A stretch of 64,000 bases of DNA. Origin: Macrocystis pyrifera (Eukaryota; Sar; Phaeophyceae; Laminariales; Laminariaceae). Positions 1,353-60,258 of this stretch are shown here, piece by piece (position 1 is the stretch's first letter; every line of letters starts with the position of its first letter). A program made the position numbers and the translations under genes. The notes beneath the pieces were generated by a model. The model did no database searches and was not told the origin of the DNA. It saw only the letters and a list, made by a program, of their open reading frames with translations. The stretch is from the NCBI GenBank assembly GCA_031763025.1, contig JASSKH010000001.1, forward strand, positions 12,875,102 through 12,939,101, read 5' to 3'.

Positions 1353-1445
1353 AAAAAAAAATATAAATAATAATATTATTACGATTTTTGGGGTCGTTGT
1401 CACTTGCTAGCTCTTGGCAGACAGACCAACTGATAAACAGCTCTT

Positions 1446-24153: not shown

Positions 24154-25490
24154 GGTGTTGTACTCTGCAGTCTTGTCGGTATTTCACTCAAAACTGTGCA
24201 ATGTATACTCGGATGTTTCGCTCTCAGGACAAAACTACTTCTGCTGCAGTACTCGAAAAATACATTTCTCCATTCACAAATATCTTTCATTTTGGCACGT
24301 AACACGTAGAACGGGTCGTGCTACAGCAACACATTAACCCAACAACTCAAAAACAAGTTACCCGCATACAAAGATGTGAACATGTGACATGCCGCAAACA
24401 CACGTGTTGCTGTAATTAGGCACAATGGTTCAACAAATACACCTCTTTCTGCTGTACTTGTTCGGTGCTGCCAGCACCAGACCAACGCTATGCCAAACTC
24501 AGCAACAGGGTGGGCTTAGCAGTCCTCTTGCTGCATATGATACGTAATGACAATGAAAAGGTGCACACGAGCAAAAGATCTTTGTGCAGTCAATGAGCTC
24601 ACATCATTCGCACGTATCTCGACTGAATTATGATGGCACATTTACCCTTCTCATTCAAAATGTATTATGAAGTACTGATATACTGTTAGGACACAGCAAT
24701 GATACAGGAGCAGACGATTTGCGAAAACATTACTCGACGTTTCTGAATTGCTCTACTTTCATCTAATAAGACTCGTACTCGCATCGATGCCCAGCCAGAA
24801 CCCTCGACCAGTCAACCATAAATGAGGCAGACGTCATTGTCCTGGAGTGCGTCTACAGGATAACTTCAGCAAGGGAAACTATATACGTGTACGTCTGAGC
24901 ATCTTATTCCTATTTCCAACATTCCTAAATCTCAATCTTCAATGTTCGGAGATTATCTACCAATTTCAAATCAATCAATCTAATAACGGAAATCGCCACA
25001 GCAATCAATCAACAAAGTAAAAAATGCCTGGTGCGGACATACGTCCTTCCTGGTGGTGCCCCGGTCCCTTCTCCTCCATCCTCTCTCTCGTGGGGCAGCG
25101 CATCCTGTCGTGCACGTACGTTATCCCGATAAACACAGAAAACGGTTAGGCACTCCCGCCGCGATGCAGCCACCGCTTGCACATGCTCAACACGAATAAT
25201 AGATTATCCCTCTCAGAGTCGAAAAAAAAGAGTCACCGCGACGGATCTTTGCCTTCAAGTATGGCGTCGTTTGAAGTGAGACCATACGCCGGAGGATGGA
25301 AAGTAAAGTTTCAACGATGTTTCACGTCGTAGCAGTCGGCCCCAATATCATCTCATTCTAAAGAATAGAAAGGTCTTATTGAACTTCCTACAGCGTCTGT
25401 CACAACGGAATGTTGATGCCGATGCGTATAATTTCCCCCCCGTCCATTTAACGTCATCTGTTTGCTTCTCGCTCTCCCTCTCAGTCGCAC

Positions 25491-25491
<1 letters not shown>
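24154..25491. repeat. 1.34-kb direct repeat, copy 2
   Basis: Near-identical to 1-1352 in the same orientation, with small deletions (for example an ACGCTAGGTATGCC-type stretch shortened near 24487). The match ends at the GTCGCACT motif and is followed by a TA microsatellite. Similarity may extend further left, beyond what the window allows to be compared. Confidence 0.9.

Positions 25492-25521
<30 letters not shown>
25492..25521. repeat. TA microsatellite at the end of direct repeat copy 2
   Basis: About a dozen TA dinucleotides placed exactly where copy 1 has its A-rich run, so it probably grew from an A/T-rich element tail. Confidence 0.95.
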
Positions 25522-29545: not shown

Positions 29546-31774
29546 CAAAAATGGTAGGGTGAGCCAGTGCTTTACGATGTCTCTCTGTATCTGCTGAGCT
29601 TCACTCCTGTCTGTAGTCGTCGGTACGCAAAGAAAAATCATTTCGGTCGTAGTGCCATCATTGCACATTCGCTTTTCCCAATTATGAATCGCAGATTTGG
29701 TGGTTTCGGATTGTAACGTATACATAGATTTTTACGTTTCGAATGGTGGCGATATGTATTGATTCCACTCTCACTTAAACGATAACCTCGGCGGGCTCGT
29801 AAACCAGGGGATATGTATTTTTACATATTGTGGGTAAAAGAGTCTTGCCCAAAATAATGCCAATTACTACAAACCATCGATACGGATGTCTAAGCTGCCC
29901 AACGCTGAACTTAGTTTCACTAGTGTGATCGACAGCCTTAACAACTATCTAAATTGTTGACGATATTGTGGATTTTCAGGAAAACACATTTCTTCGAAAT
30001 AGTACAATGTGTTCTTTTTTATCTTCCTTCTTGGAAAGTCAAGCCTCAAAATAGAAAAAAAATGTCCGTTTCCACGTGGCGTTTGTTTGTGGGGCCACTA
30101 GTCTCAGTATTGTAATACTCGCTTGACACAAAGCCATTGTGCACTCACGTGACGAGCAGTGGACGTTTAAGCAACTTTGGAAGAACGGTGGTTGCCTTCA
30201 ACCACTGTGTGAAGAAATTCCTGTGTTGCTCCGCGAAAATATATTTCTACTGTAAGGGGTATTTTACACATCACAATCATCGAGTTTTATCCGGTGAAAA
30301 GGAATATTGCGAGGTACAGAATGTTTAGAAGGTTAAAACAACTTGTTCCAAACCATATAGTACAAATTTTTCATCGATTAGTGCATTCACACATTGAGTA
30401 GTATGCTGAGATGCTTTAGCCGCCACCATCGGTGGCCATTCCATGTCGATGGCCATCCAGTATATTTCTGCTTGGATTGGTGCAGTCATGGGCTTTCGTG
30501 TAGAGTGTATTGTTAGTTTGCAAGCAATTGTACATTCAGAATATGTCATGAAGTATAACTGTGCACTGTCTGCACAAGAAACAACTGTGATGATAATTGT
30601 GCCTGAAACGTCGCAGCCATGGGCCCTACACGTAGATGGCACTGTACGCGGTGAGCGTGCAAGGCGAAAAGATGTAGAGCAAGACCTGAAGTAACCTACA
30701 GGTCGAAAGAAAGCCTACTGGTGGTTACTCTCCAGGCACGTACGTTTAAAAAAAAGTGGGATGCAAAGGGTATGTCATGTCAGAAGTATACACGCATCCG
30801 TGACGAGTGCCTGATGGTTTAGATAACTTTCGCCATATATAGTGGTCCAAGTACGTCGAAAGTAGTACAGGGGATGAGTCATATTCACTGGCACGTAGTA
30901 TATTGTAGTCTTAACCCATTTGCGTGCATGTTTAGATGATATCAGACAAGCACACTGGACGAACACAATGCGTGCGTGGCAAATATTGGTGCGACCGTCT
31001 CAGGCCGATCAGTACCATCACGGTACGCGAAGCCTAGACATACATGTGAGGTTCCAAACTTAACCGAGTCGATACAAACAGAGCTAACTATCATGGAACT
31101 GCATGGACATTACCTATTCTGTCTCTCTCTCGTTACGTAGTCGCCACTGGGGGCTCTATATCCGTTTGGTCTGGCCACAAGCGAGGACAACATCATCCAC
31201 AACGACTGTAGAAGGCTTGAAACACATCAATCGTATCAATGTCCATGACATGTATATCTTAACCAGTATGCGCTTCTCTGACCATACCAACTGTGTATTT
31301 AAGATGCTCGCCAGTAAGTGTACATATCGTCAATGGCCTCTACATTTGTCTTTTTCCGGCTGGGGTAGACCCTAGTCTTCCAGGCATGCCTTCAAAATGC
31401 CTGAACTACTGGTTCTGAAACAGGCGTGCCTGAACTACTATTTCCGTGCCTTTATTTCCTATCTTTATGCCTATCTCAAATGAACTTTGCTCATTCACAC
31501 AAAGATACTTGAAATAAGTATTGTGCTTGTCTTGGGGCAACTTGAAAGTTTCAGGCACGGCTCGGGCATAATTTTAAGGCAAATGCCTCCCATAGATAGG
31601 AACACCAAGACAAGGCAGACATATGCCTATCGTTTGGCCAATCACAGTTTCTTTAGCCTGCGGTGTGCCCATCTCGACGCGCTTGAACGCCTTAAAGTCC
31701 AGGGCCTAGCCTGGGGTTTAGCGATGGTCGCTGGCCGGGTACGGGAATAGATCGCTGAACTATCAAACTCCTAT
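29546..31774. other. No recognisable gene; TGCCT/AGGCA-rich stretch at 31380-31640
   Basis: Open frames of 105 codons (minus, 30325-30642) and 90 codons (plus, 31103-31375) carry no motif I recognise. Just before the gypsy LTR, 31380-31640 is rich in TGCCT and AGGCA motifs, including two copies of TGCCTGAACTACT at about 31399 and 31428. It may be a small old inverted-repeat element, but I could not define termini. Confidence 0.4.
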
Positions 31775-32270
31775 TGTGATATAGGTGGAGTATTCAAGGG
31801 CTATAGACATAGAAAATACGTTGCAGTCTTGTAGTCTCACGAATACGAGAATAATCCAAAGAATGGATTAACCCAGCGGATATTCCGTTAGTCGAGAGTA
31901 ACGTTCTCTTCGGAATGTTCCCTAGGGCGGATAGCCCGTTAGACGAGAGTAATGTTCCTTGACGCAGATAGGACTACCAAGTGAGAAGCTCTTATATTAG
32001 CAGAAGAACGACCGGTAGCCATAGGAAAGTTCTGTAGGCGTACATCAGATAAAAGGAATTTAGGAGAGCTTGTGGCGTGGGGTGGGACGAGTATATCTGG
32101 GCGTCGAGTCCCACCCCCCTACCTCTCACTTCTCTACCAGAGCACCTCCTCAGCTCTCGCCATCAATAAGAAGATCTAAATCAGAAGAAGCGAAGCACTG
32201 CTTTCCAGCTGCCAGAACCACCTGCGTCCCTTACCACTACCCTTACCACTACCCTAGAGCGGTCACCGCA
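31775..32270 (+). repeat. 5' LTR of the gypsy element
   Basis: Begins TGTGATATAGG and ends GGTCACCGCA, i.e. TG...CA. Same length (496 bp) as the 3' LTR at 44116-44611, with about 8 mismatches and no indels noticed. Confidence 0.95.
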
Positions 32271-35188
32271 TCACATCTGACGTCGTCGCATTCAACGAAT
32301 GTTCTGGCCAAGCTTGGGACTGCAGCGCTTCTTCTAGATCTTCTCACGATCATGTGAGCCATCCCTATCCGGGTGGCATCTGATTTTGAAGTAATTTTGT
32401 TTTTTGTTTTTATGTGCCCTGTTTCTCGTTTCTTTCGTTCTTCTTGCTCTCTCTTTTCTTTCGTTTTTTCTTCTTTTTGTTTAACGAACCTGCGTTACTG
32501 AGTGCGTTTATAGTGTAGAGCGTGACAAGCTGCCTAGTGGCATAAGTAGACGCTTCTCCCCTCCCAGTATAGGTGAGTTGACGCTTCTCTCCTCTTAGTA
32601 GGCACCGTCAAATCGCACGTGCAAGTACGTACAACAAGCTCTGCTGTTCTTTCTTAGTAAGTACTTGATATATAAGTACTGGTGCTATTAGCAGTATGAT
32701 GATCGAGGTTTGTTTTTTCCGCTCCTTATACCCCGTCTCCGCCGTGGAATGACGAGATCGATGACCTCCACGATACGATTCCACGTGGTTGAATGCACCT
32801 GGAGACCCCCCCAAATGACCTCGTGCTCATCGCACAAACCAAGCAGCGTTTTCCTTTGTACCCCTCCGCCTCGATATGCCCGCCCTTTCACAGGGAATGC
32901 ACGTAGTAAGTACTACTGTAGGTGGAACTACTGGCACATTCTTGCCCGCAGACATTTTGTCTGCATCTTCCGGTTTATACCCGTGTTGTATAGGATTTGA
33001 CCCTTACCACGACTACAAAGAAGCTGCTATCGTACTGGTAGGACAACCACGCAGCAGTACCTTATTCTTTGGTACCAGTACGTGATATGTATGCCGGTGG
33101 TGTGACCTACTACGCCATCGTTAGTATACGCATCTGTATGCAGCGTACAAACGGCTCGACCATAATTGCGAATTGTATCCGCTTGTATCCATCGCATGGA
33201 ATATTCGCCTGCGAGTTCTTGAGAGGCCATTATTATTATTTATTTATTTTTACCTGATACGAGCAATGGTATACGTATTGACTGACCTCACTTGCGACCC
33301 CCTGATAGCGAGAAGAATCATATATATATATTTTATTTTTATTTTTTTTCGTGCCGTTACCGGATTTCAAACCATATACTGGCCTACAGAGACTGGTATA
33401 CGAGCGAGGTACAAATAGTGAATAGTGGTACCATGGTACGTAGTAATAATATTACGTATATTATAGAGAAAATTCCCGTGAACCTCCCCCTCGTTCCCTG
33501 CCATATATTCAGGTAGCCAAACGATGCACAATTGGGTCGGTCTCCCCGTCTCGATGTGATGTGTGTGTGTGTAGGAACGCATATACTCGCAGAACAATCT
33601 TATATGGTTGCACGTAGTAGCTCTTTTGGGACCAGCGTACATATGTGCACCCCTCTTCAGATTGGCCCATCCTTACGCTGCTTCTACCCTACGAGGTACA
33701 GAACAAGCGGCATGATGCACCTCTTGCGGCGCCTTCACTATAAGAACAGGGCGCATGTTGCCAAAATTGACCAGATTTCTGCTACATTTTTTTGCCCCAC
33801 TCCCACAGCCTACAGAATACAAACAACGGCCATTATTCCATTTGTTTTTGTTTTTTTTTGTATTACTGCTGCTCTTTACGTGCACGTTTCCCAGCGTTAC
33901 GACATAACACAGCTTTATGATGCTGAACCTTGTCCCACGGCTGCCTGTGTGCATCTAAATTTCTCAGTTTTACGCCAGAAATACGGTATAAGCTGCCTAC
34001 GTGCACGATCTTCAGCGTTAACGATACAACGAGGCTTTATGGCGCCCAACCTTGTCTGACTACTGCTGTTTACGTCTACCCCCCCCCCAGCTGTACTACA
34101 TTAACAGAATGTACGACACCTGATCTGGTCCGAATCTTCTGTTTGGTCGAGTTTGTTTTCCCTCCCTTTCCCGTTTCGCTTTCGACTTTTGTTTTTTGTT
34201 TTTTGTTTTTTTTTTCCCGACTTTTAAGCCAAAGCAGGGTAGACACTGTTCGAGTTTGTAACAAGTGTTATTTTCCAGCGTATCCCATCCCTACCCGCTT
34301 TTACAAATATGCAGGGTACACGCTGCCTAGAACTGTAACACTACAAAGGCTACACAAACGAGTAACATATCATGTGTTTACCCCTTGTTTGTCCAGCTTC
34401 TCACAAAAACAGCAGCTGCCTGCTGCTCATATATGGGGCATAATAACTGTGGCCCGGGCAGTGACCAGTTCCAAGGAGATGAACTAAATGCTGGCCAAAT
34501 TAAACAAAATAATATACACTTTTCGCGGCGGATTAGAGTATTGGACCTCCCCACAGGAGCCGAATGATACTATTTTCCACATTTTTACGTACCGGGGTCA
34601 ATTTATTTATTTTTTGTTTCCCACTTGTGTTCCGAAATGCACCGGTTGCTGTCTGTTTTGCCACGGAACGACAAGCTGCCCACCGTTTAGGGAATCGCCC
34701 GATATTCTGTGCAGCTACTAAATAGTGCCGGCATGCTGCATTTTTTTTCCCCGACTCGACCTGCACATTTTCTGTACGGGTACACTTATTTGTATCCCAA
34801 CGAAAGGTCTTGCACTGCCCACGCTCTGTAATCGTCACGCCCTGCTATCATTACGAACATTGGGCATTTCAGACCGAGTTCTGTTCAATTATGTTCAACT
34901 GATATCACTTGAGTGACCCCGGCGTCACTACCGTCAATCAAACGCGAGGCGCCTGACGCTAGTTAGATGCCCTCAACTATAAAAATTCCTTCGACGGGCA
35001 CTAAAATCGTGGCACGCACAACCTCAACACCCCCTATCATACGTCTTTACCGTCACTCCTTTCTCTCTCCTAGATCGGTTTGTTGGTATTGTAGCCGCCT
35101 ACCCTGATCCAAGCCTGGATCCACCCACCCTCTCCATCTTCCACCAAACCTTTTCCTGCCCCAGTACAAGCGTTCCACCCGCCTAAAC
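32271..35188 (+). other. Gypsy leader region, 2.9 kb, no gene
   Basis: An unusually long stretch between LTR and gag. It is T-rich with several poly-T and TTTTG runs (32390-32480, 33338-33350, 34190-34216). It contains a 12-bp palindrome GTACCATGGTAC at 33428-33439. A diverged tandem repeat of about 121 bp starts at 33878 and 33999 (ACGTGCACG, then CAGCGTTA, CTTTATG, AACCTTGTC), with a possible third degenerate unit near 34300. No open frame has a recognisable domain. Another element nested here cannot be excluded. Confidence 0.5.
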
Positions 35189-36992
35189 ATGGCCGAGAAA
35201 GCTTCCTCCACCAACATTCCCGGCGCCCACCCCCCCGACGCCACCAACCCCCGCGAGGCGAGGTATGCCGCAAGGGCCTTTCGCGCTACCGACGACGACA
35301 CCCCTGGCTTCGAAACCATTCGGAGCGACTTCACGCTACACCCCACCACACCGGGATCTTCTCCAATGGGAGCACTCACGACCAGTGCCGGGCCTACCAT
35401 CAACCCGGAGGTCTCTGCACAGGAAACCTCCACCCTGGCTCTCAATCCGGGGCGTTACCAAGGCGATCCCACGGCCCTCCGTGAGTGCCGTGCGGCCCTC
35501 AAAGCCCACCACGAGCAGCTCCTCCTTCTCGCGAAAGAGGGCGCTGACCTCCTACTCGTGTTACCGCCGTCCCCCACCCTTTCCTCGAACCCTTTCGACT
35601 CCACCTATGGGACCACAGGTGCGACCGCGGCCACCACGGCCCAATCGCAGCCGTTCGCTCCTCACCATGGGCACCCTATACGTCCGCCGCGATGTCTAGG
35701 ACCAGAACCTCCCAGCCTCCCAAAAACCAAACTGGGACCACAATGTCCCAGGCACCACTACCGGCCCAACCCTTGCCAGCCCCCATACCCACTGGGCACC
35801 GGCATCCGCAGACGTTCGGCTTTGAGCCCAATGACTGGGTCTTCCTCGACGCTAAGCTCCGCTGGATGCAGAGTACACGCGACGCGACGGCCTCGGATGT
35901 CTCGCTAGAGACACACCGTGTATGGCGGCTCTTCACATCCGACTGTAACCCGTCGATCGCTTTCGTTCTGGCCCGCGTCGCCACCGAGGGTGTTTCTTCC
36001 GAGTTCATCGGGGCCGCCCATACCCGTTTACTTGAGCCACGGTATTGTCACTCGAACGCCGACCGCGGCTACGTGTGGAACCCAACCGTCTCGACCCGCT
36101 CCCCCGACACACCCAGCCACCCGCCCCACGACGGACACGCCATCGCCGGTGACACCGCCCCTTCCCACCTCGACAGCGCCCTCCCACGACGACAGCGCCC
36201 CCCTCCACACGAGCGCGCAGCCTGATGACGAGAGCCAACACGGAGCCCACGACGGAGGCGGAACGTCGTGGTGTCCCACGCCCACGCCCTACGAGCTCAC
36301 GGTGACCCCTGCCCCAACTGCAATGGCACGGACATAGTATGAAGACCTTCTCCGAGCACTTCGCAACACGTTCGGCATCCTCAGCCCGGTACGCCTACCG
36401 CCAATGGCAGCAGAGGATGCTCTTATATCGCCGTGGACACTACGAGCACAACCTGGAGCGAAACTCCAACCGCTCCGACAACAACAACCGTCGAGGCAAC
36501 AACAACAACAAACCGCAGCGGAAACTACAACAGCAACCGCTCCAACGAGAACCACTCCCGCAACTACCGCGGCAACAACGGGCGCTCCGACAACTGGCGG
36601 CACAACAACGGCCGGACATACGACAACGGCAACCGACAGTCGCCAGGGCAACAGTTACATCGACAACGCATCGAGCCTGCCCCCTCGTCTTCAGCATTGA
36701 CGGTGCATACCCCTGCGACCAACACTTCCGCACCTGCCGCCCCCGCGAACATGCGGATGGGCAGCAACCACTCGGGTACCCACCCGAACCAACGGCCACC
36801 GGGCACCTTCCGCACCAACTGACAAACCGGTGGTGGAGCAACTGCCGCATCTCCACCAACAGCATCTACTGCGAGCACCCGAGGCTCCCAGGACGCACGA
36901 ATAAATCACGTGCATCACGCCTCCCCGACCCCTGCCCTCCAATGCCCCCCCCCTACCCCAGCCCATTTCACAGCCACTTGTTCAAGCACTGA
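35189..36992 (+). pseudogene. gag of the gypsy element (frameshifted)
   Basis: The start is taken at the first ATG after the leader, in context AAACATGGCC, reading MAEKASSTNIPG. This frame stays open to 35908 and is proline-, threonine- and alanine-rich. From about 35692 the next frame reads a more structured part (FGFEPNDWVFLDAKLRWMQ, ETHRVWRLFTSDCN), which I take as the capsid-like portion, to about 36225. A third frame continues from about 36339 with FSEHFAT and AYRQWQQR, then an asparagine/glutamine/arginine-rich stretch. No CCHC zinc knuckle could be read in any frame. At least two frameshifts separate these parts. The identification as gag rests on position and composition rather than on a diagnostic motif. 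Confidence 0.6.
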
Positions 36993-37474: not shown

Positions 37475-39240
37475 ATGGCATCCCCTAGCGAGTATGCCCC
37501 TGTTCTCCAAACGTTGGACGATAGGGCGCTTGAGGGTCGTCCCGCCCGGCTGATAAGCCCCGGCGAGGACCGCCCCGGTACCTCGGCTTTGTCGAGCAAT
37601 TCCCCCGCGAACACGAGGGTTCCGGCCAGCACCGCTCGATCGTTGCTGACTCTACCTCCGTCGACGCCAGGCGGCGATAGGAAAGATTATCGTCGCCCCC
37701 CACCCCCGACACAAAAAACGTCATCAACTGCACACGTCACCGCAGAGGCCGCCTCATCTTTCCACTTCTTCTGGGACTCCTCTTCGGTCTTTTCGCAGTG
37801 GTACCTGTGCGACATCGAACACGATGGCGTCACATACAACAGCGCTGAGCAGATGATGATGGCGCAGAAGGCCGCACCCTTCGGGGACATCACAACTGAG
37901 CGCCGCATCAAAGCGACCCGCGACCCGGCCCGCCAAAAAGCACTTGGGCGAACCATTTCCGACTTCGACTAAAGGGTCTGGGAGCGACACCGCTACACCA
38001 TCGTCCTCTACATTAACTTCTCCAAGTTCCGCCAACACCCGGAGCTACGGGAAGAGCTAATAGCAACCGGCGACAAGCACATCTCCATGGCCAGCCCACA
38101 CGACCTCATCTGGGGCATAGGCTTCAAGGCCGACCATCCGGACGCCTGTGACCCGACGCGTTGGCGTGGTCGGAATCTGCTGGGCAGGATACTGATGGAC
38201 GTTCGAGAAAGCCTCGGCGCCGCCCAGCCTCCATTTCCTCCCCATCTTCACGACCCGGAGCCAACACCCGCCCTCACCGACTCCACCCGGGTCTCCCCCA
38301 CAGCCGACGGCATCCACGAAACAAGCCCGACCCGTCCATGGCAACCGCCTACCTCTCCACTTGGGCCACTCCTACCGCCGTCTACCCCGACGCCTACCCG
38401 AGCAGCCACTTTGCCCAAGGGTCCACCATCAACACCGCAGCCCACAGCCACCTCCTTACCCGCCGCCCGCCGATACCAGAACACGGACCATGCGGCATCA
38501 TTACCGTCGACGACGCGTCGTTCACGACGAAAGTACTCGTGCACAGCGGCCCCCCCCGTCACTACGCGCCGCGAACTCGTGGCACTGCTCGACACCGGCT
38601 CGCCCCAGTCGTTTATCACCGCAACCGCGGTGGAACAACTGAAGGCTTCCCAGGCAGCCACCGATGCGTGCGAACGGCACAGTTCCCCCCGTTCACGGGG
38701 AGGTTTCGGCACTTCAGCCCCCCTTTCCACCTCCGTCTCCATCCGCTTAAGCATCCAGTTTATGCGCCTGGTGCAGCACCCCATCCTTCTGGGACGAGAC
38801 AGCTGGATGCGCTTCGAGCAACGCTCGTATACCACGCTCCAGCAACAGCCCACCCTCCCCTATCAACCTCCCCGGCGAACCCGCGGTGAGCTCTCCTTGA
38901 ACCACCATGACCCCAGCGGAGCCTCTGCATTCATTTCCAACGATCGTTCCACTGACGACGTATACCCCCTCCGATTCGCCGGCAACAAAGCTATTTCGCT
39001 TTCCTCCACCCCCAAGCTCGTCAAGGTCAACCAGGCGCGTCAGTTAGTCGCTCCAGCATTTACCGGGAACTACATGGTGAACATGCTCCCCCGTGAGAAC
39101 CCCCTTTCCGACACGGCCATTTTCGTCTCGGATATAAACCAAACGGTCCAACTATCTGGATCTACCGATCTCGAGCCGGGCGACCTCCTCGGAACCTCCA
39201 GCTCCCCACTGGTACAGGTACACTTTCCACCCTTGGACAC
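37475..39240 (+). pseudogene. NADAR domain fused to retroviral-type aspartic protease (gypsy polyprotein)
   Basis: One frame, interrupted only by TAA at 37970-37972, runs from a proline/serine-rich linker into a full NADAR (YbiA/DUF1768) domain at 37760-38215. In order it shows FWDSSSVFSQWY, YNSAEQMMMAQKAAPFGD, DPARQKALGR, FD-stop-RVWERHRY, KFRQHPELREELIATGD, ASPHDLIWGIG, WRGRNLLGRILMDVRESL. Family members hydrolyse N-glycosidic bonds of ADP-ribosylated or phosphoribosyl-linked compounds; the Glu of SAEQ is the conserved acidic residue by homology. After a proline-rich linker, VALLDTGSPQSF (Asp codon at 38591) and HPILLGRDSWMRF mark the aspartic protease, followed by a beta-rich segment to about 39240. 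The stop lies inside NADAR just before a conserved Trp, so this copy would make a truncated domain unless read through. Confidence 0.9.
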
Positions 39241-39246
39241 CCTTCC

Positions 39247-39694
39247 TTGGCCCCTCCCCATCCCCCTCCGATTCCGGATGTACATGCCCTCCACGACAAC
39301 ATCCCCGTGGCCGACCAGAGCCCATCGACAGACGACTCTCCTACCGCACCAAAAGCCCCGTGCCCACAACTTCTTGCACGCCTCAACGCCGACCAACGGG
39401 AAAGCATCCTCGACTTCTGGGAACGTCTGCCGTTACACCTACGCGACGTCAACTTCGACCTGCACGGTTCTAGATGAACCCCGTCGGTGATCAACCTGGG
39501 AGACGTCCTCTGCGAATTCCTGGACGTCTTCTCCACCACCAAGACTGACTTCGGCTCGTGCCCGCTCATGCCGTTCAAGATCACCGTACCCCCGGACAGC
39601 CCAACGGCTCGAGCTCCTTTCAGCGCACACCTACACGCTGGAGTACCGGAAGGGCACGACCAACGGCAACGCCGACTTCCTCTCCCGGCTTCCC
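39247..39694 (+). pseudogene. Reverse transcriptase/RNase H remnant with the catalytic core deleted
   Basis: Frame 39247-39477 reads the pre-RT segment (LLARLNADQRESILDFWERL) to a TGA at 39475. The frame continues INLGDVLCEFLDVFSTTKTD, CPLMPFKITVPPDS (to about 39600), which is the usual N-terminal edge of a Ty3 reverse transcriptase. From 39620, in another frame, the next recognisable sequence is HTYTLEYRKGTTNGNADFLSRLP, the C-terminal edge of RNase H. Everything between, including the YxDD polymerase motif and the RNase H active site (normally more than a kilobase), is absent. The junction falls within about 39600-39620. Confidence 0.85.
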
Positions 39695-40606: not shown

Positions 40607-41413
40607 CGCGTCTACGTGCCAATGTTAATGCGCCTTTGGGTGCTGAACACATGCCACGACACCACCTCTCTACACCTGGGAGTCACCCGAACGGTCCATA
40701 TGTTGGCACGTTTCTTTTGGTGGATTGGCATGGACGCTTCCGTCCGCTGGTGGATCCGCCGTTGCCTTCAATGCCAGGTGCGGAAGACCTCTCGGCACAC
40801 CATTCGTTGGCCCATCCTTTCTCTTCCTTTGCCCAACGGGCCTGGCATCACCGTCAGCGTCGACTACTTCGGGCCCCTGCCGCTCACGCCGCGCGGGAAC
40901 GTCCACCTCCTCCTCTTCACAGACCGCTTCAGCCGCCGCGCCGACATGTATGCCGTTTCAGCGGCGCAGTTCACGGCCGCCGGCACTGCCGACATCTTCC
41001 TGAACGAGTACATCCCTCTCTGGGGGTGCCCGGTTACACTTCTCTCCGACAACGGACTACATCTCACCTCCAAGCTTACGAACATCGTCTACGAACGCCT
41101 TGACGCCCACAAGGTCAACACCAGCTCCTACCACCCCTGCACCAACGGCGGCGTCGAGCGCGTCAACCACGTGCTGGCCCACATGCTCTCTATGGTTGGC
41201 AACGAACAGCAGACCGACTGGGACGTGCTGCTCCCACACGTGTCGTCGGCCTACAACAAATCCGTGAACGCCGCCACAGGGCTTGCACCTAACGAAGTCC
41301 ACATGGGCCGCCTTCCTCGCCTCCCGCTCTCGGTCTTCGAACCCGACAGCATCGGCGGTCGCCACAGCTTGGACTGCGATCACCTGGTTTACATCAACCT
41401 CGCCACCGACTGA
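40607..41413 (+). CDS. Integrase (HHCC zinc-binding plus DD35E core), gypsy element
   Basis: An open frame with the zinc-binding HHCC array in CHDTTSLHLG and CLQCQ, and the catalytic triad in VSVDYFGPL (Asp codon 40862), TLLSDNGLH and NGGVERVN. Exactly 35 residues lie between the second Asp and the Glu. A GLAPNEVHMGRLPRLP segment follows, as in Ty3 integrases. The frame is open upstream to 40292, and no start codon is expected because the protein is cut from a polyprotein. It ends at TGA 41411-41413, after which the same frame continues into the C-terminal domains, so the stop separates the catalytic core from the chromodomain. This is the best preserved catalytic domain in the element. Confidence 0.9.
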   Translation, partial: RVYVPMLMRLWVLNTCHDTTSLHLGVTRTVHMLARFFWWIGMDASVRWWIRRCLQCQVRKTSRHTIRWPILSLPLPNGPGITVSVDYFGPLPLTPRGNVHLLLFTDRFSRRADMYAVSAAQFTAAGTADIFLNEYIPLWGCPVTLLSDNGLHLTSKLTNIVYERLDAHKVNTSSYHPCTNGGVERVNHVLAHMLSMVGNEQQTDWDVLLPHVSSAYNKSVNAATGLAPNEVHMGRLPRLPLSVFEPDSIGGRHSLDCDHLVYINLATD

Positions 41414-42487
41414 CAACGACGCGCCTATTCCCTCGTCCGCGAACCACACCGACTCACCGTACAGCGCAGCAACGCGCCCATCATGGCCGCCCTGATAGCA
41501 TCCCCCCCCTTCACCGTAGGCGGCTGGGTTTGGGTCTACAACTCCGCCTCAACCATCCGCCAAGGCGTCAAAAAGGGCACCGACGCAACCGTCCTCAAGA
41601 CGAAGCTTTCCCTGAACTGGAATGGCCCCTTCAAGGTCCTCGCCGTAGGGCCGACGCCCGCCTCAAACACCCCCGACAATCGCCCCCTTCACGACAAGCT
41701 GTTTTTCCTCGACCTTCCATCGGACCTTCCGGGACGCGACTCCAAGCCACGCGTCTCCGTCCAACGATACAAACCTTGCCGGAACCCCGACGACACCAGC
41801 GACATCCCCAAGCATCTGCCCGCGGACCTTACTACATACGTGCTCACAGCTTCTGCCGCCAAGTCCCCACCTTACCACGTCACCGTCGACGACGTCACTC
41901 CTCCACCGGAACGCCTCGAGGTCGAGCAGATCACTGGCCATCAACTCGTACGCGGCCGCGGCGAGGTCATCGCCGTTCTGTACGAGACTCACTGGACTGG
42001 ACTTCTCAGCCCCTCTTGGGAACGCGAGCTGGACCTTCAACACTTCCGGCGCCACATCCTACTGCACTGGTCACGATCACCAACCCAGCACCGCCAGACG
42101 AACCGCCTCTACCGCCAGATGCCCATCGGCGCCGCTCACCGCGAACTGGCGCGATCTCAAGGACAAATCTTCCTCGCCCCAGGCTACGCCTTGGTCTCCC
42201 GCAGCCTTTGGCTCCACAACGTCAGCACCACCATCCTACCCTCCGGAGCACACATATGGTACAAGGCGCGCGACGGCCTTTGGTGGCTGGGCAAGGTCGC
42301 TCACAGCTCACCCCCTGACGCCTCTTCGGGAACTCCGCCGGAGCCTTCACCGGGAAGCTCCTACATCGTCCGGTTCCTGGACGACCCCGGCCCGATCAAG
42401 ATCGACCTCCAACCCGCCCGCTACACTACAGCACGGAACGCCGTATACGGATCATGGTGTCTTCAACTCCTGGGAATGGAACCCTAG
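41414..42487 (+). CDS. Integrase C-terminus with chromodomain and Tudor/SH3-like domain, gypsy element
   Basis: Same frame as the integrase, open from just after the TGA at 41411 to TAG at 42485-42487. The part after 41483 starts with an integrase-tail segment (GGWVWVYNSAS, LSLNWNGPFKVLAVG) and RYKPCRNPDD. A chromodomain-like block at about 41915-42070 reads LEVEQITGHQ, YETHWTGLLSPSWEREL, FRRHILLHW. Such domains steer chromovirus integration toward marked chromatin. A further block at about 42245-42472 reads IWYKARDGLWWLGKV, YIVRFLDDPGPIKIDL, YGSWCLQ, which resembles a Tudor/agenet-type SH3 barrel with an aromatic-rich first strand. The second domain's identity is inferred from pattern only; the chromodomain is more certain. 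Confidence 0.7.
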   Translation, partial: QRRAYSLVREPHRLTVQRSNAPIMAALIASPPFTVGGWVWVYNSASTIRQGVKKGTDATVLKTKLSLNWNGPFKVLAVGPTPASNTPDNRPLHDKLFFLDLPSDLPGRDSKPRVSVQRYKPCRNPDDTSDIPKHLPADLTTYVLTASAAKSPPYHVTVDDVTPPPERLEVEQITGHQLVRGRGEVIAVLYETHWTGLLSPSWERELDLQHFRRHILLHWSRSPTQHRQTNRLYRQMPIGAAHRELARSQGQIFLAPGYALVSRSLWLHNVSTTILPSGAHIWYKARDGLWWLGKVAHSSPPDASSGTPPEPSPGSSYIVRFLDDPGPIKIDLQPARYTTARNAVYGSWCLQLLGMEP

Positions 42488-44115
42488 CACGTGGGGTGCT
42501 GCGGAACTCTGATGTGTTCCGCGGAACCCCCACCGTTTCCACTCCCACCCCTGGTTAGCCTTAGTTTAGTCTTTTGTTAGTTCTGGGTATTTGGTTCTGG
42601 TTAGTCTGCAATATCTTAGGAGTAGTTCTTCAGGGTTAGTCTTCAGTAGTCATCAGCAGTCATCTTCTTGGGAGTGTTTGTTTCTATCTACCGCCACCGG
42701 TATCGCTTGACCGACCCCGTGTTGGCTACCGATCCGAGGCCGTGTATGTTTCTTTTTTTTGGGTGTGTTTTGGGAGTATCATCGCCCCCCCCCCACCCCC
42801 CCCGTTTGTTTTTCTTCTTATCGCCTACGGCTCTGTGTAACCTTTTTACGTTCAGGCCACTGACTCGTAACGATACCTTCATTTGCATTTGTGTTTGTAC
42901 TCCACTAGCCTACAGCCACTTATCGGCGATATCACGCCGAGGAAAAATCGTGTTGTAGCCTGAGCTGTACTCTGACCTTAGTCGACTTCCGCCGACCGTG
43001 TTTCAGACGGTCCTCGAGCTAAGACTATATCGAGCTTCCAGCTCATCCGTGTTTCTTCCATGTTTGACAAGTAGGGTCCCGATAGCATTGCCGCTCCGGA
43101 AGGCCGCTGAGTTATCGGCCATACATATAGCGGTTCGGACATGATCGATTTCTCCTGACCTGTGTCCAGCTTTTTGTCTGTTTTCTGGCCCCGATGGTAT
43201 TTCGTTTTCTCTTTCCCTTTTCTTCCTCTTTTCTTCTTGTTCGGTATTCCGCACAGCCCTCTGTCCTCTGGCAAACGACACCAAGTTTGCTGTCGCCCCG
43301 GTTGACCGAGTTGCACACGCTAGTGTCTGGACCCCGCGCTATCTACTACTTCGAACTGCAAGCATTCGGTCGATTTTCTTGCGGATTTTCTTGCCGCCAC
43401 CATCTTTGAGATTGTTTTTGTTGAGTTGCCTACCTTGCTACGTTTGCTGGTATTGTTAACACCACGAACAGGTCTCCGATACACCGCGTTGTTTGTTGCG
43501 CCTCTCGGCTTTAGTAATCCCTAGTGCACGCAGCCCTCATAGCACTCTAGCTGTGTCCCTTCTGTCTCGCGTGATGTCTACCATGTTAGGACCTTCGCCA
43601 CAAGACAAGGCATGGCGCCTAGCGGATATATATATGTGTTTTTGAATTGTGATCACTGTCTCCTTTTTAGAAGTTTCCTCGTTCGCCAACCCGGTTCAGC
43701 GAACAACCCTTTCGTACCTCCTTGGGCCCCAGACAACGACTCAAGTACTACGCTTGTACGTGCTTCCTTTTCCTTCACTTCGGTCTTCGTTTTCTTCTTC
43801 AGCCTTCGCTTCGGTTTCTGTCTCCTTTTGCGTTCGTCTTTCTTTGTTTTCATTTTGGGTGATTTTTCCTTTCGCCTCTGCTTTGAGTTCTGTCTCTCTC
43901 CTTTAGTCTCCCTTTCAGTGGTTGTTCTCAGCGAACACCCCCTCGTCGTAGTATTTGGGTCTTATTACGAGGTGTGGGGGGATCTATAGCCTCATTTCGT
44001 TTGTTTCGAATAGCCGCATCTTCGACCACCTTTTTCCTGGCCGTTTGGGATGAACTTTGTCATCACCCTCCGACCATCTTGTGGTCTGCATATACGACTG
44101 TTCAATGTGGCCTAG
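42488..44115 (+). other. 3' untranslated region of the gypsy element, no gene
   Basis: Begins with CACGTGGGGTGCTGCGG after the stop and is T-rich, with repeated GTTAGTCT motifs (42555-42665), a C-run at 42785-42803 and a (TTCG)-rich area near 43780-43900. No clear polypurine tract lies directly before the 3' LTR. The nearest purine run is GAGGTGTGGGGGGA at 43971-43984, about 130 bases short of it. Confidence 0.6.
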
Positions 44116-44611
44116 TGTGATATGGGTGGAGTATTCAAGGGCTATAGACATAGATAATACGTTGCAGTCTTGTAGTCTCACGAATACGAGAATAATCCAA
44201 AGAATGGATTAACCCAGCGGATATTCCGTTAGTCGAGAGTAACGTTCTCTTCGGAATGTTCCCTAGGGCGGATAGCCCGTTAGACGAGAGTAATGTTCCT
44301 TGACGCAGATAGGACTACCAAGTGAGAAGCTCTTATATTAGCAGAAGAACGACCGGTAGCCATAGGAAAGTGCTGTAGGCGTACATCAGATAAGAGGAAT
44401 TTAGGAGAGCTTGTGGCTTGGGGTGGGATGAGTATATCTGGGCGTCGAGTCCCACCCCCCTACCTCTCACTTCTCTACCAGAGCACCTCCTCAGCTCTCG
44501 CCATCAATAAGAAGATCTAATTCAGAAGGAGCGAAGCACTGCTTTCCAGCTGCCAGAACCACCTGCGTCCCTTACCACTACCCTTACCACTACCCTAGAG
44601 CGGTCACCGCA
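44116..44611 (+). repeat. 3' LTR of the gypsy element
   Basis: TGTGATATGGG to GGTCACCGCA, 496 bp, about 98% identical to the 5' LTR. Confidence 0.95.
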
Positions 44612-46549
44612 TTATACTATGGGATCATAAGGGGAAGCAGTTAATAGTGAAATATACATGGCTGAGGTGACGTCGACCGACTAAGTGACGAGAAACGGTG
44701 GCCTAAGCCTGTGCAAACAAGGTGACGTATCGGGCGCTGAATGACACCGTACGATAAATAGCCGTCGATTGCTACTGGTTATGGCAACGTGGGAATCCGC
44801 TACTAAATTGGTTTGCTCAGTACACAGTAGTCACCTGACGTGTCAGCTGCGAAAGCGGCCCGCCCTAGATTTTGTATGGGTTACTACGCCTTCTCCAGTG
44901 AGGGTGCCCCCCACCCCCCGCCAGGTCCTGAGCTCAATATGGTATTTAGATGCCAGGTAGTTCGTATTTCAAGCGCTCGTTCATTTTATAGTTTGTAGTT
45001 CAACGTTACGAACGAGCGCTCCATGCTATTCTAGACCGCTTCCTCGACACATCTTAACCCAATGTCCGAACAATTCCGTGCTAGAAGCTAGTGTTCCGCT
45101 TTGGTGCGCGCGTCGATCAGCGATATACGGTTTTCGAGGTCACTTATCCAACCCCGTTCTTGCCGCCTCCAGAAGTAACGCTTCCCGTCAGCTTCCGAAA
45201 TTAGCACACTAGCCATCAAACTCCTGCTGATCCACACGAACTCAACTCCCACGAGACACATCCTCCGTTTGCACAATGTAGGACTGATCCTAGCGCATCC
45301 ATGGATAGCCGAAGCATGTTTACAGAGCTGCACGCTGTAATTGTCGTGACGATCTCTCTTCCCCCCACGAGACGAAGGACCCATCGGCTACGAGCATGGT
45401 AAGTTGGTTTCGAGTCGTGCTTTGATGAGATTATTGTATCGCTCGCCGGTACATCTTGAGAAGTGACCATCGCCAGTTTGACACGGAGCGGGGTGGTGGA
45501 GAGGGCATACGGCGTGGCAGGTCGTATCGTCTGATATTTGGGCTGGCCAAAGTCAGTCGACGGTTTATTTCGTCGGTAGAACCAGCTTAGTTGCAATCAG
45601 TTTCCGCAGTGTACTAACCGTTGGGCGTTTGCGTATCGACCTGGCCGACTACCTCAGCAACAAACATGATCCTGTAACAACATTTGGCGCTGGCCTACAC
45701 GGTCTCCGTCGTTGCACCCAAAACTGTCAGGACGAAGGGCATTCTAAAGCAATATCTGTCATCGTTATCGCTGAGCTGTCGCTTTATCTGGAAACAGTGC
45801 CTGCTGAACGGCGTGCATGATTTTCCTAGTCGGTTGCGGGGCCGCCACAGTGTAGTTGTGGGCGAGTCTCGACTTTTAATCCGCATACGTGTTGTCTTCT
45901 TCCCCTTATCGTCCTTCACGTGTTGAGGGCACACACGACATATTACACAATATATTCCTCGAGCTGAACACGGCTCCGAACCGCCACACACGGTACCGCA
46001 TATAGAATGATGAACCACAATGTAGCGAGCACCGTTTCCTTGCCATGTGTCCTGTCCCACATGGAATGTCCCACATGGAATTAGTCCGCACATTGTCCAC
46101 AATATGTTATTATGTTCCCTTACAGTCCATCGTGACAATGGGCATTGTCTGTGAGAATCGTCGAGGGTATGCCGAACCGAGCGGACACCATCCACAAGGG
46201 AGGACATACAACCGAGTTATTGGTTTTCTGACGTGGATTTGTGAAGCATATGACAAGAGGACATATTGTTGTTTCGTGCAACTCTCTGAAACTGTCGGGC
46301 CACGAACATAATGTTGTTCGTCGGCCAGTTCTTCAATAGTCGCTACTCCTCCGGTGTGAAAATGAGATCGTTAAGTTAGAAAATCATGACCCGCCACATA
46401 TATATACGCCATATCGTTAAGGATGCGTTTACGCACGTATGATCTCCTAGCGAACCCTATAACAGTAATATATCCTCGTTAGATCTTCGTGAAAATATCA
46501 GCGAAGATTGTTCCGGGGTTTAAGATCGAGCCTCCCTAAACACACAACA
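44612..46549. other. No recognisable gene
   Basis: The right flank of the gypsy element. A CTAGAAGCTAGTG motif at 45081 also occurs at 12464 in the second-part repeat, so faint remains of the gene family may be present. Frames of about 125-170 codons on the minus strand (45216-45596 and 45695-46207) show no motif I recognise. Confidence 0.45.
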
Positions 46550-49660: not shown

Positions 49661-51799
49661 GCGGTCGATGGCCGTCCAAAGTGGCGTCGATGTCCACAAG
49701 AGCAGCAAGCAACGCCGGCAAAGATTGCGGTAATTCCCTTGAATCCCCTAGCATGGGACAGTAGTTGAACGTATCCCGCAAACCTGCGGTAGTTCCTTGC
49801 GGCTGGCGGCGCTTTTAACGGCTCCTTAAGTAGTCAGCAACGATATAAGTGCCGTCTTCGACATCAGGCCGACGCGGTGGTTAAGGCGCTGGTCGATTTC
49901 CGCTGTTGACTGGGGAGGAACTCTTTCCATCAACATGACAACACCTCTTCGACATGCTCAACGCTTTCGTAGACGTTCGGAGCGTGTGTGCATCTACGTA
50001 CAAATCGACATGGATCACGCACACTCCGCACCATTCGACCTCTTTCAATACAGGATTCCACACACCCGCAACACGCACGAGTCCATCAATCAATGCAGAG
50101 CTTCCTCCGTAGATCCCGAATAGAATTGACGAACATACGTCACCATTCTCGGAGACCCTCCGTTGATATTTGTGGTACTCTACACTTGTTGTCAATCTTT
50201 ATAGACACCGACTTTCGCATTAACCTAACAAACGAGTCCACCAAATCCACGAACCTTCACCCCACCCCGCAGTGAAAAGGGTGAAATTACGCCACAATTC
50301 TTGATTGAATCGTATACCGATCATGAATTCTTCTTTCCACGGATTTGGGTGTACCCTAGAGATAACAAATCACGTCGTATCGCATCGTGGACGTTCTTTG
50401 CAATGTCGTCGACCTTGGGACTATCTGAAACACATCAATCAACTTTACTATCTAGACGAACGGTTACTGCGACTGCACGCGAGAACGAGAACCAAGTTAA
50501 CCGACGGTTTTAACGTATGGCAAACGATCGCCCCCCCGACACACTTGAAGGTGATGCTTGTATTTTGTTGGCACGGGATACTGTCGATCACTGCAAATGT
50601 ACACGACCGTGGGATCTATAGCGGAGTTTAACGGCATGCGTCACGCATCGGTAAGGCAATGGTCATACATCAACATGCAACGGGACCTATGTCGGGCGAA
50701 CCACTCAGAGTTGGAACCATTGGGCGGGGTGTGCGTGGCACGTCCTAGCCCCCCCCGCTGTGCAGCCCGATAGCCACGAGGAAAGCTCTGTGGTACACAT
50801 AGCTATAAAGCTCAATGTACGAAACAAACAACCCGTGTGCACGGTCTCGAACAGCGCCTTCTAGGCCTCGACCCTTGGACTCGAACTAGACGTTACTCCG
50901 CCCAAAGCTCCACCTGAGCAACCGGTTCAGAGTTTGGACAACACGGAACGTGTTAGATTCACTCGCTCATGCGTGACACAACGACACGAAACCTACGACT
51001 ACGGGTTCTGGGTCACGCGGAGAACGATGCAAGGGATATATGGCTGGCGCTACAGTGCCTATTTGACTCTTGTCGTCAAAGAGCCCTCGCCATGAACATA
51101 CGGTAGTTCCAGTTGTAGTTTCCATATGTCAAAAACACCATAACCCAGAGTGACTAGGACGTCATTAATATAAGCACTCCAGCATCTCGAAATTCAGGCG
51201 ATCCTACATCTTGTTGGGATGGCAGGACAGTATATGCGCGACGTTTTATCGAGAATTAGAGCACAGGCCGGACAATGCGTACAACATACTTGCAAGCCTT
51301 TAACTTGATTCGTCCCGTACATGCAACCAAGAATATTTCAAAGAGTTCATGATGAACGAGCCTGCCACAGCAAAACAAAATATTAACGCAGATACAATTT
51401 CACTGTTCGCCGGTTCCCCTGCGTCGTGGGGCAGTACGTGACTCCAAACAACACGTCATCCACGGCACGTACGAGTGATAGAAGACATCCAAAAAATGTA
51501 TACGCATCTTGCGCTTCGCCATGTCTACAGTGATGAACACTTGGTCGTCAAATGTACCATATTCTTCATTAGAGCCAGAGATATAACCAAAGGGTTTCAC
51601 CGACCTTTGCGTGCGTTGCAATTCAACGGGCATTGGTCCGGTTTATCGGTCGATGGTACATTTTGCAATGCGCAAGCCGTTCATTGAGGGAGTCGGGGCG
51701 GTGGTAACATCAAACCTGACATCTACATATCTGCACCCGGTTTCATGCGTTCTAACGCTTTTGCCCCTTTGAGTTAGTACATTGTAAAAACACGTTTTC

Positions 51800-58788: not shown

Positions 58789-58819
58789 AACGACGCGAAA
58801 GGAGACGTGCCGGTCCTTC

Positions 58820-59791
58820 TCACTGTCGTCTGTGATGGCACCCGAAGATAGTTCCCGTAGTACCGCCTTGGACGAGATGCTGGCCGGCGACGACTATCGT
58901 GAGTGGGACCCGAAGGTCTTCGACATCGCGCATGTGAGCCCGCACTCCTGGTGTAAGCGCAAGGTCGAGGTAATTGTCGGTCGCTCCACTGCCCACAACC
59001 ATGCGGAGAGATGATCCGTCGGAGCGGAAAGGAGCAAGCGACAACCATGTAAGAGTCGTCATGAAAGCACCGATGAACCCTGAACGTAGATGGTGGTCCT
59101 GCGTAGGTGACTCTGGTTTGGCAGCAGCCGCCGCCGGAGGTGTCTGGGAAGCGGCAGACGACGAGGCGGCCTCTGCCAAGGAAGCACCTATGGTGCTAAA
59201 GAAGAACACGAACGTATTCGGCTCGGACTGGGCCGGCTGTGCCAGAGTCAGAGACGACTGTGTCAGGTGAGCGCTCCCGATGTTGGAGAAGTTGGCTTGG
59301 CCAGCGGACTGCAGCGCCAGGTTCACAGCCAATTCTTGGGGCTCCTTCTGCTTGTGCTCCCGGAGCTCCTGCTGGTTCGGACATTCAGCATCGCTGTGCG
59401 TCATGGTTTGGTGATAAGAGCACCACTTTGGCTGAGTACTCCCACCACTGCCTCGCTTGTTCTTCCTCTTCTTCCCCCCCTGCTTTGGACGGCCCTTCAG
59501 TGCTTCTTGGGGGCAGTCGCGCTGGAAATGCCCGTACGCCTTGCAACGGTGAAACTGGTCGGTGTTTGATGCAACCACCATCGCGGCCCCCCGACCTGAG
59601 ACCACGGTTCCCGACGCGTTGCGCGATTGGTGGTCCACGTAAAAGCAGTTAGCCATCTCCTGGAGACGGTCCAAAGAACAGAACTCATCCCGGTAGTGCA
59701 TCTCGCGGATGAACTTGAATTCCGGGGGCTTGGTCAGGCCCGGCAGCATGATGTCCAGGTATACCGCGTCCGAATCCTCATCTTCCAGCAC
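58820..59791 (-). pseudogene. Copia gag C-terminus, zinc-binding motifs and aspartic protease (inactive)
   Basis: The frame from 59791 reads FKFIREMHYRDEFCSLDRL and FYVDHQSRN. The first zinc motif is FHRCKAYGHFQRDC, in which the first Cys of the usual C-x2-C-x4-H-x4-C is Phe. A basic stretch follows, then a second motif WCSYHQTMTHSDAEC (C-x2-H-x4-H-x4-C) and an alanine/glutamine-rich linker. The protease starts MVVGSGATDNYLD, in which the catalytic Asp of D-S-G-A-T is Gly (GGC where GAC is expected). The frame stops at 58820 and continues in another frame at 58788. Two key single-base losses and the frameshift mark this copy as dead. Confidence 0.85.
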
Positions 59792-60258
59792 GCGTAGGTG
59801 AAGCTTGAGATACCACTCTTTCGTGAATAAGTCAATAGAATCACCGCCAGCAAGGTGCTGCTAAGTTGAACAGCTCGTTGTGACACGCACGCCGAGCTTC
59901 TTGGGTTTGAGCGTCGAAACGCTCGTTGAGAACTTTCCAGGCTGCCACCCCACCCCCCATGGCACCGGCGTCCATCCCGCCGTGAGTACGGACAATGAGC
60001 TGCGCAAACCCGGAGGTCACGAAAAAGAGGAGGAGTATAGGCAACCGTTGGCCTTTTCCCACGCGGCCACAGCTTCCGCGTTCTCCACGGTTGCCGATGG
60101 GTGCTTTTTGCGTCCAGGACGTGATGAAGCTCCAGCGCGTGGAAGATGATTGTTTGTCGAAGCTTATTCTTCCATTCGCGAAGGCCCAAACGTCCAGTGC
60201 ATTTCCCAACAGAGTCCAGCATGAGGTGGAGCCCGAAGCCCGATTGTTCCGCCATCAC
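59700..60258 (-). pseudogene. Copia gag N-terminus (frameshifted)
   Basis: Starts MMAEQSGFGLHLMLDS, then REWKNKLRQTIIFHALELHH, as in UBN2-type copia gag. After a frame change it reads FAQLIVRTHGG, AAWKVLNERFDAQTQEARRACHNELFNL to 59841, then shifts again to join the frame at 59791. The first Met at 60258 (or the adjacent 60255) is the likely start. Confidence 0.8.

What the first reader, a model, noticed from the sequence alone, without database searches (positions are those of the whole stretch)
37760..38215. NADAR (ADP-ribose/N-glycosidase) domain built into a Ty3/gypsy retrotransposon polyprotein
Seen: a complete NADAR pattern (FSQWY, SAEQMMM, KALGR, KFRQHPEL, ASPHDLIWGIG, WRGRNLLG, LMDVR) sits in the same frame as, and 125 codons before, the DTGS protease of an LTR element. 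Known: NADAR enzymes cleave N-glycosidic bonds, including removal of ADP-ribose from guanine in DNA and action on riboflavin-pathway intermediates. Inference: an element-encoded ADP-ribose eraser could undo host ADP-ribosylation of element RNA, cDNA or proteins, i.e. a counter-defence. A plain captured host gene is the main alternative. Whether such fusions are already catalogued I cannot check here.
Basis: partly seen in the sequence, partly recalled or inferred. Interest (0 to 1): 0.88.

Follow-up and report, generated by a model that had tools for sequence, protein, structure and literature searches.

The report
Kelp retrotransposons carrying an ADP-ribose eraser
This is a dead copy of a large family of virus-like jumping genes in a brown alga that carry an enzyme domain of a kind that cuts ADP-ribose off molecules; the same fusion was reported in another brown alga in 2025, so it is a new member of a known kind, still without a proven job.

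Summary
It is no one-off: the host genome, whose size and contig count match Macrocystis pyrifera, has at least 150 NADAR matches, in at least two subfamilies. All 20 larger regions opened, chosen for NADAR, also hold RT-region sequence, 17 of 20 integrase. Of 80 subfamily B copies chosen by RT or deletion-junction sequence instead, 66 keep the domain. Key catalytic residues are kept in 28-29 of 30 element NADARs, and the domain is better conserved than its flanks.

The window copy is dead: a stop inside NADAR, Met for the catalytic Glu, no RT core. At least 40 listed copies share that RT deletion, so an RT-less, NADAR-keeping form has spread.

The fusion is already in print for Ectocarpus (PMC12477816). 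Counter-defence is possible but untested; this genome gave no DarT match and one short PARP match. Verdict: real, constrained, new member of a known kind.

The parts
31770..32271 (+). 5' LTR (likely TG...CA core 31775-32270)
   Evidence: 98.2% identical to 44111-44612, 9 mismatches, no gaps; the LTR probe also finds a pair flanking another NADAR copy. No target-site duplication recognised.
35108..35908 (+). open frame in the gag position, no family match (gag assignment is inference from position)
   Evidence: same region aligned at about 88-96% in 8 sister copies
37769..38215 (+). NADAR domain (YbiA type), broken: TAA at 37970-37972 and Met at the catalytic Glu position (38087)
   Evidence: Pfam PF08719 E 2.2e-12 and 1.5e-25 on the two halves
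38591..38602 (+). DTGS motif of the aspartic protease, 125 codons after NADAR
   Evidence: Asp_protease_2 only E 0.19, below cut-off
39606..39607 (+). junction of the shared RT/RNase H deletion (about 1175 bp missing against L016 and L018)
   Evidence: a 200-bp probe across the junction matches 40 listed copies (the window among them) end to end
40616..41134 (+). integrase: H2C2 zinc-binding and rve core
   Evidence: Integrase_H2C2 E 7.7e-17; rve E 3.3e-5, 24.5 bits against a cut-off of 32.6
41918..42058 (+). chromodomain-like stretch
   Evidence: PF00385 E 0.19, below cut-off; a chromodomain is reported for the Ectocarpus relatives
44111..44612 (+). 3' LTR

Best explanation
The finding is a decayed, RT-deleted copy of a brown-algal Ty3/gypsy lineage whose Pol polyprotein carries a YbiA-type NADAR domain ahead of the protease. 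Shown: the domain, its place, its high copy number, its retention across two subfamilies, its conserved active site, and the broken state of this copy. Inferred: in working copies the domain is made as part of the Gag-Pol or Pol precursor, is packaged into the virus-like particle, freed or left tethered by the protease, and there cuts N-glycosidic ADP-ribose (or a similar ribosyl) linkages on element RNA, cDNA or particle proteins, keeping them fit for reverse transcription and integration. I give about 0.7 to 'an active N-glycosidase kept for the element's own benefit' and about 0.3 to the narrower 'it undoes host ADP-ribosylation of element nucleic acid'.
For: PF08719 above cut-off in 150 of 150 scored places (of 1264 first-look candidates). 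In 20 of 20 regions of about 10 kb picked for NADAR, RT-region sequence lies downstream; integrase in 17 of 20. Of 80 B copies picked without regard to NADAR, 66 keep at least 90% of it. Between one A and one B copy the domain is 50.7% identical, against 27.3% and 30.7% in the stretches on either side, 46.6% in the protease region and 77.4% in the RT N-part. Residues matching P. nicotianae E43, K50 and E125, whose E. coli C7 counterparts matter for guanine-ADP-ribose hydrolysis, are E in 28, K in 29 and E in 28 of 30 element NADARs, and 92, 97 and 99 of 100 kelp copies. The AlphaFold model (pLDDT 88.4) matches NADAR 8bau, solved with ADP-ribose (E 3.9e-8, TM 0.81), and YbiA 2b3w. NADAR and RT identities rise and fall together across 19 elements, r 0.965, 0 of 2000 permutations as high.
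Against: No activity is shown. 14 of 80 copies lack all or much of the domain; the 80 are the best-scoring copies of subfamily B only. Within subfamilies pN/pS is only 0.53 and 0.63, and 0.61 for 21 copies picked without regard to NADAR, as expected where most copies are dead. NADAR diverges faster than RT between A and B (51% against 77%). Ligand-contact residues Y84 (F in 30 of 30) and D86 (not conserved), and R93 (R in 20 of 30), differ from the oomycete enzyme. The window copy is catalytically dead. No DarT match, one short PARP match. The r of 0.965 leans on many near relatives.
Confidence: 0.62

Rival explanations
1. Counter-defence proper: host enzymes ADP-ribosylate element RNA, cDNA or particle proteins, and the NADAR domain erases it.
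For: NADARs reverse guanine ADP-ribosylation in toxin-antitoxin pairs and the oomycete enzyme does so in vitro; [quoted passage not shown] active site conserved; macro (3) and PARP (1) matches suggest that some ADP-ribose chemistry exists in this genome.
Against: No DarT-like writer found, while the same search rings in 1 of 14 control genomes; the PARP match covers only 51 of 199 positions, though introns hide genes from this search; no ADP-ribosylated element nucleic acid has been seen.
Confidence: 0.3
2. Metabolic or RNA-processing role: the domain removes damaged or NAD-derived groups (riboflavin intermediates, NAD caps, ADP-ribose derivatives) in the particle or on the genomic RNA, without any host attack.
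For: NCBIfam names the domain riboflavin-intermediate N-glycosidase, E 1.5e-44 and 1.2e-45; the Ectocarpus authors suggest processing of the RNA intermediates; [quoted passage not shown]
Against: Same reaction chemistry as the eraser model, so nothing here separates them; a family name is not a tested substrate.
Confidence: 0.25
3. Catalytically idle: the fold is kept as a structural or RNA-binding part of the precursor.
For: NADAR diverges faster than RT between A and B; some ligand-contact residues are not kept.
Against: The catalytic residues, not only the core, are kept in 28-29 of 30 element NADARs at about 43-63% identity to kelp A or B.
Confidence: 0.15
4. Passenger: a host or bacterial gene caught once and carried along without function.
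For: Some capture is how it began; named non-element relatives are brown-algal and bacterial NADARs at 58-62% identity to kelp A.
Against: Retention in subfamilies that differ in 49% of the domain's residues, with saturated synonymous sites (pS 0.74 against pN 0.35) and conserved active site.
Confidence: 0.04

Closest known systems
[quoted passage not shown] Gypsy-12_Ec32; PMC12477816)
   Same: Brown-algal Ty3/gypsy, NADAR at the N-terminal part of Pol, reported C-terminal chromodomain; one search lists Ectocarpus proteins with NADAR plus RVT_1
   Different: Other host (the main text has 0 occurrences of kelp, Macrocystis or Saccharina); here very many copies, two subfamilies, and an RT-less derivative that spread; whether that derivative exists in Ectocarpus was not tested, nor was a direct alignment to Gypsy-12_Ec32
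Tx1 LINEs of Crassostrea gigas with NADAR-like ORF1 (as told in PMC12477816)
   Same: NADAR built into a retrotransposon protein
   Different: Non-LTR element, other protein, divergent domain; not examined here
NADAR domains in polyproteins of positive-strand RNA viruses (PMC9503650; BFVD hits)
   Same: Domain embedded in a replicative polyprotein
   Different: RNA viruses, with an RNA-dependent RNA polymerase; 22-29% identity for the named ones
DarT1-NADAR and YarT-YbiA toxin-antitoxin pairs (PMC11543638, PMC11125620)
   Same: Same fold and catalytic positions; the YbiA type has Glu at position 125
   Different: Stand-alone antitoxins beside a writer gene; no DarT match in this genome
Retrotransposons with captured DNA methyltransferases (PMC5890265, abstract seen)
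   Same: Retrotransposons that carry a captured enzyme acting on nucleic acid
   Different: Other enzyme and hosts (dinoflagellates, charophytes); activity shown there, not here

Membership tests
NADAR superfamily (PF08719) | Curated HMM score | tested here: met
   window halves 47.9 and 90.8 bits, cut-off 35.1; L018 165.9 and L009 180.7 bits
NADAR superfamily (PF08719) | Fold | tested here: met
   AlphaFold model of the L018 domain against 8bau E 3.9e-8 and 2b3w E 1.9e-6
YbiA subfamily of NADARs | Glu at the position of P. nicotianae E125 | tested here: met
   28 of 30 element NADARs and 99 of 100 kelp copies; the one exception among the 100 is the window copy, with Met
YbiA subfamily of NADARs | Hydrolysis of guanine-linked ADP-ribose or riboflavin intermediates | not testable with these tools
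   needs a bench assay
Ty3/gypsy (Metaviridae) LTR retrotransposon | LTR pair | tested here: met
Ty3/gypsy (Metaviridae) LTR retrotransposon | RT, RNase H, then integrase | tested here: met
   relatives: L017 frame has NADAR, RVT_1, RT_RNaseH; P0173 has RVT_1, RNase H, H2C2, rve in that order, all above cut-off; the window copy itself lacks the RT core
NADAR-bearing Gypsy lineage of Ectocarpus | NADAR at the N-terminal part of Pol, chromodomain at the end | tested here: inconclusive
   NADAR position met; chromodomain only E 0.19 in the window and not listed at E 0.1 in P0145 or P0173; no direct alignment to Gypsy-12_Ec32 was possible
DarT1-NADAR toxin-antitoxin | DarT writer | tested here: not met
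   no DarT match in the genome, 0 candidates
Non-autonomous LTR derivative | Shared internal deletion of RT in many copies | tested here: met
   7 of 9 subfamily B copies, window included, share it; 40 listed copies match the junction probe end to end

The most novel reading that the evidence does not exclude
Brown-algal Gypsy elements use a Pol-borne NADAR hydrolase to wipe host-placed ADP-ribose off their RNA or cDNA, which would point to an undiscovered nucleic-acid ADP-ribosylation defence in a multicellular eukaryote; the RT-less derivative that spread while keeping NADAR would then be a cheater or helper that supplies, or hitch-hikes on, this function.
Probability: 0.25. Interest if true: 0.85.

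Novelty: new member of a known kind. Interest (0 to 1): 0.5.

Why it matters
It turns a short passage about Ectocarpus into a second host with a very large copy number, evidence of constraint on the active site, and a spread RT-less derivative. If the enzyme erases ADP-ribose from element nucleic acid, brown algae would have a nucleic-acid ADP-ribosylation system that is not described in anything I saw; the purified domain makes that testable.

Tried and rejected
One-off insertion: rejected. Chance motif match: rejected. Sister lineage without NADAR: not found, within subfamily B only. The 14 of 80 copies without a near-full domain are 2 with about half (L033 and L035, near-identical to each other, so perhaps one event), 6 with only its last 37-44 bp, and 6 with nothing in the fetched 1.0-1.1 kb. 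The 8 with a remnant lose the element at a single 5' point, with no clear element sequence further up in the fetched stretch, so they look 5'-truncated rather than NADAR-free; the 6 empty ones are undecided. The 35 of 74 proteins without PF08719 are no evidence either: three that I read (P0145, P0164, P0173) begin just before or inside the protease region, and P0162 has an unrelated N end.

Origin: a single origin of the element NADARs (with five nearby unnamed rows) is not rejected (AU p 0.42), nor is a clade with the brown-algal NADAR genes (p 0.27); deep branches are unresolved and the bootstrap had not settled, so host capture, bacterial transfer and later domestication stay open. The 65-row tree left out 54 of 119 rows: P0147, P0130, P0190 and 51 rows not known to be elements. 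In one search, 20 of 100 extracted copies were left out (2 duplicates, 18 not of full length). In one search, 40 of 41 LTR matches were used (a 66-base piece left out). Dating in years: not tried, no rate at hand. No target-site duplication recognised. DarT: none; PARP and macro: few. Paper search was useless: none of its 20 listed papers holds DUF1768.

Full report
Observation. The frame holds a NADAR domain at 37769-38215, followed after exactly 125 codons by the DTGS motif of an aspartic protease. Pfam PF08719 finds each half of the domain on its own, E 2.2e-12 and 1.5e-25, both above the curated cut-off; the halves are split by an in-frame TAA at 37970-37972. Downstream lie an integrase zinc-binding domain (E 7.7e-17), an rve match below its cut-off, and a chromodomain-like stretch of E 0.19. 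The element is framed by LTRs at 31770-32271 and 44111-44612 with 9 mismatches in 502 bases. The LTR probe finds another pair around a second NADAR copy (C195) and single LTRs near two more copies of the family; in all 6 of 40 matches, two of them the window's own, lie within 9 kb of a listed NADAR or junction on the same strand. The other 34 may be solo LTRs or belong to copies outside my lists; this was not checked.

Host. The assembly behind the window has 537,376,219 bases in 223 contigs, the largest seen 26.5 Mb. The giant kelp Macrocystis pyrifera assembly of PMC10498591 has 537 Mb, 223 contigs and a largest contig of 26 Mb (passages seen). I take the host to be Macrocystis pyrifera; this is a match of statistics, not a name in a record.

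The domain is a fixed part of a large family. The genome search scored 150 of 1264 first-look candidates; all 150 were over the NADAR cut-off. A search with a brown-algal NADAR protein (P0011) listed 151 matches of 1400 candidates at 46-60% identity, partly at other places, so there are probably more subfamilies than the two I studied. In 20 of 20 regions of 9.9 kb picked for NADAR, RT-region sequence lies downstream; integrase is seen in 17 of 20 (not in L011, L013, L024), some stretches ending before its expected place. Two subfamilies, here called A and B, differ in half of the domain's residues; the window belongs to B.

An RT-less derivative. Against L016 and L018, seven of nine B copies, the window included, lack the same stretch of about 1175 bp with RT and RNase H, with one junction. 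A 200-base probe across the junction matches 40 listed copies (the window among them) from end to end at 98-100% (40 of 563 first-look candidates scored). A probe inside the missing stretch lists 40 copies that keep it, at 93-100%, 37 of them over the whole probe (40 of 974 scored). So an RT-less form has spread, presumably by the enzymes of full copies (inference), while keeping NADAR.

Retention. Of the 40 junction copies, 35 keep at least 90% of the NADAR DNA, 2 about half, 2 only the tail, 1 none; of the 40 RT copies the numbers are 31, 0, 4 and 5. For 45 of the 66 positives the evidence is a listed NADAR match at the right distance (43, 2), for 21 the fetched DNA.

Constraint. Between an A copy (L017) and a B copy (L018) the domain is 50.7% identical, the stretches before and after 27.3% and 30.7%, the protease region 46.6%, the N part of RT 77.4%. 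Between all A and B copies used, pN is 0.35 and pS 0.74, saturated. Within groups pN/pS is 0.53 (43 A copies) and 0.63 (37 B copies); these were mostly chosen by HMM score, which favours intact copies. For 21 copies chosen by RT or junction sequence it is 0.61, with 2 stops and 4 changes at the eight active-site positions checked, in 4 copies. This fits purifying selection on source copies plus decay of most others.

Active site. PMC11543638 (passages) shows that D171, E88 and K95 of E. coli C7 NADAR, equal to E125, E43 and K50 of the oomycete enzyme, matter for guanine-ADP-ribose hydrolysis. Mapped through the alignment (paper numbers taken as chain numbers minus 2, my inference), these are E in 28, K in 29 and E in 28 of 30 element NADARs; R79, W89, D130 and W133 are kept in 29-30 of 30. 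R93 is R in 20, C in 9, K in 1; Y84 is F in all 30 and D86 is not kept. In 100 kelp copies (5 of them DNA-identical to another) the E125 position is Glu in 99, the window's Met being the only exception; E43 is kept in 92 and K50 in 97. The AlphaFold model of the L018 domain (pLDDT 88.4) matches 8bau and 2b3w; its residues 101-130, with the catalytic loop, are among the least sure (block means 59-77).

Relatives. Of 74 proteins found with a NADAR-protease-RT piece, 39 carry PF08719 by precomputed domains, 23 of them also RVT_1; the only organism named is Ectocarpus sp. CCAP 1310/34, most entries having no name. Searching with the NADAR domain alone gave 2080 proteins, 120 listed; many of the nearest (up to 84% identity) are unnamed and their context unknown. 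Named ones are brown-algal proteins (58-62%) and bacteria such as Nannocystis (61-62%). Trees do not resolve the origin: one clade of element NADARs is not rejected, p 0.42.

Prior work. [quoted passage not shown] So the kind is known. My other searches (open-licence PubMed Central only) showed no second paper on NADAR in retrotransposons among the listed titles: 20 of 104, 13 of 13, 10 of 87 and 1 of 1 hits were listed, and 'NADAR' may also match surnames in calls that did not ask for whole words. One search did not reach the question. Among the hits only PMC12477816 was opened. PMC5890265 was seen as abstract and outline.

Function. What is shown is a conserved hydrolase domain in a polyprotein. 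That it acts in the particle on ADP-ribose or like groups attached to element nucleic acid is inference, from NADAR biochemistry (PMC11125620 parts 1-2 of 6) and from the viral parallels of PMC9503650 (passages). The genome search shows 0 DarT candidates (control: rings in 1 of 14 genomes), 1 PARP match of 51 of 199 positions (control: 0 of 14) and 3 macro matches (control: 8 of 14); introns make this search weak for host genes. The counter-defence reading is therefore open.

Noticed in passing
L032, L037, L050, L056, L058, L059 (break at L018:4457 or nearby); L029, L052 (break at L018:4080-4081): Truncated copies lose the element at the same place inside NADAR with at least four different upstream sequences; a second point recurs twice. 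A strong reverse-transcriptase stop, an RNA cleavage or start site, or a favoured insertion site could do this. The upstream of L050 reads like a LINE RT end (my reading, not family-tested).
   Followed up: partly
window 37970-37974 and 38084-38088: Window-specific changes are clustered: 5 of the 12 base differences from one sister copy fall in two 5-base stretches, one with the stop and one with the lost catalytic Glu.
   Followed up: no
P0011, P0034, P0040, P0069 (two Ectocarpus, Pylaiella, Scytosiphon): Brown-algal stand-alone NADAR proteins of 227-252 aa share a Cys/His-rich N-terminal motif (PGC...C...H..C...HA); Pfam listed no family for it in the three scanned (P0011, P0040, P0069). Origin relative to the element NADARs unresolved.
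   Followed up: partly
window 56712-59860, minus strand: Remains of another LTR element: SH3_retrovirus above its cut-off, gag_pre-integrs and rve below theirs (the Copia-like label is recalled).
   Followed up: no
window 13863-13980, minus strand: A 5S rRNA match over the whole model, 68.5 bits.
   Followed up: no
window 1-1379 and 24154-25521: 94% identical direct repeats 24 kb apart; further repeats of about 70-71% at 4605-6033, 16123-17562 and 49917-51311.
   Followed up: no
subfamily B loci L015, L018-L021, L023, L028: Integrase reading is shifted at the same place (after residue 73 of the window frame), while the window reads through; could be a frameshift site or a shared defect.
   Followed up: no
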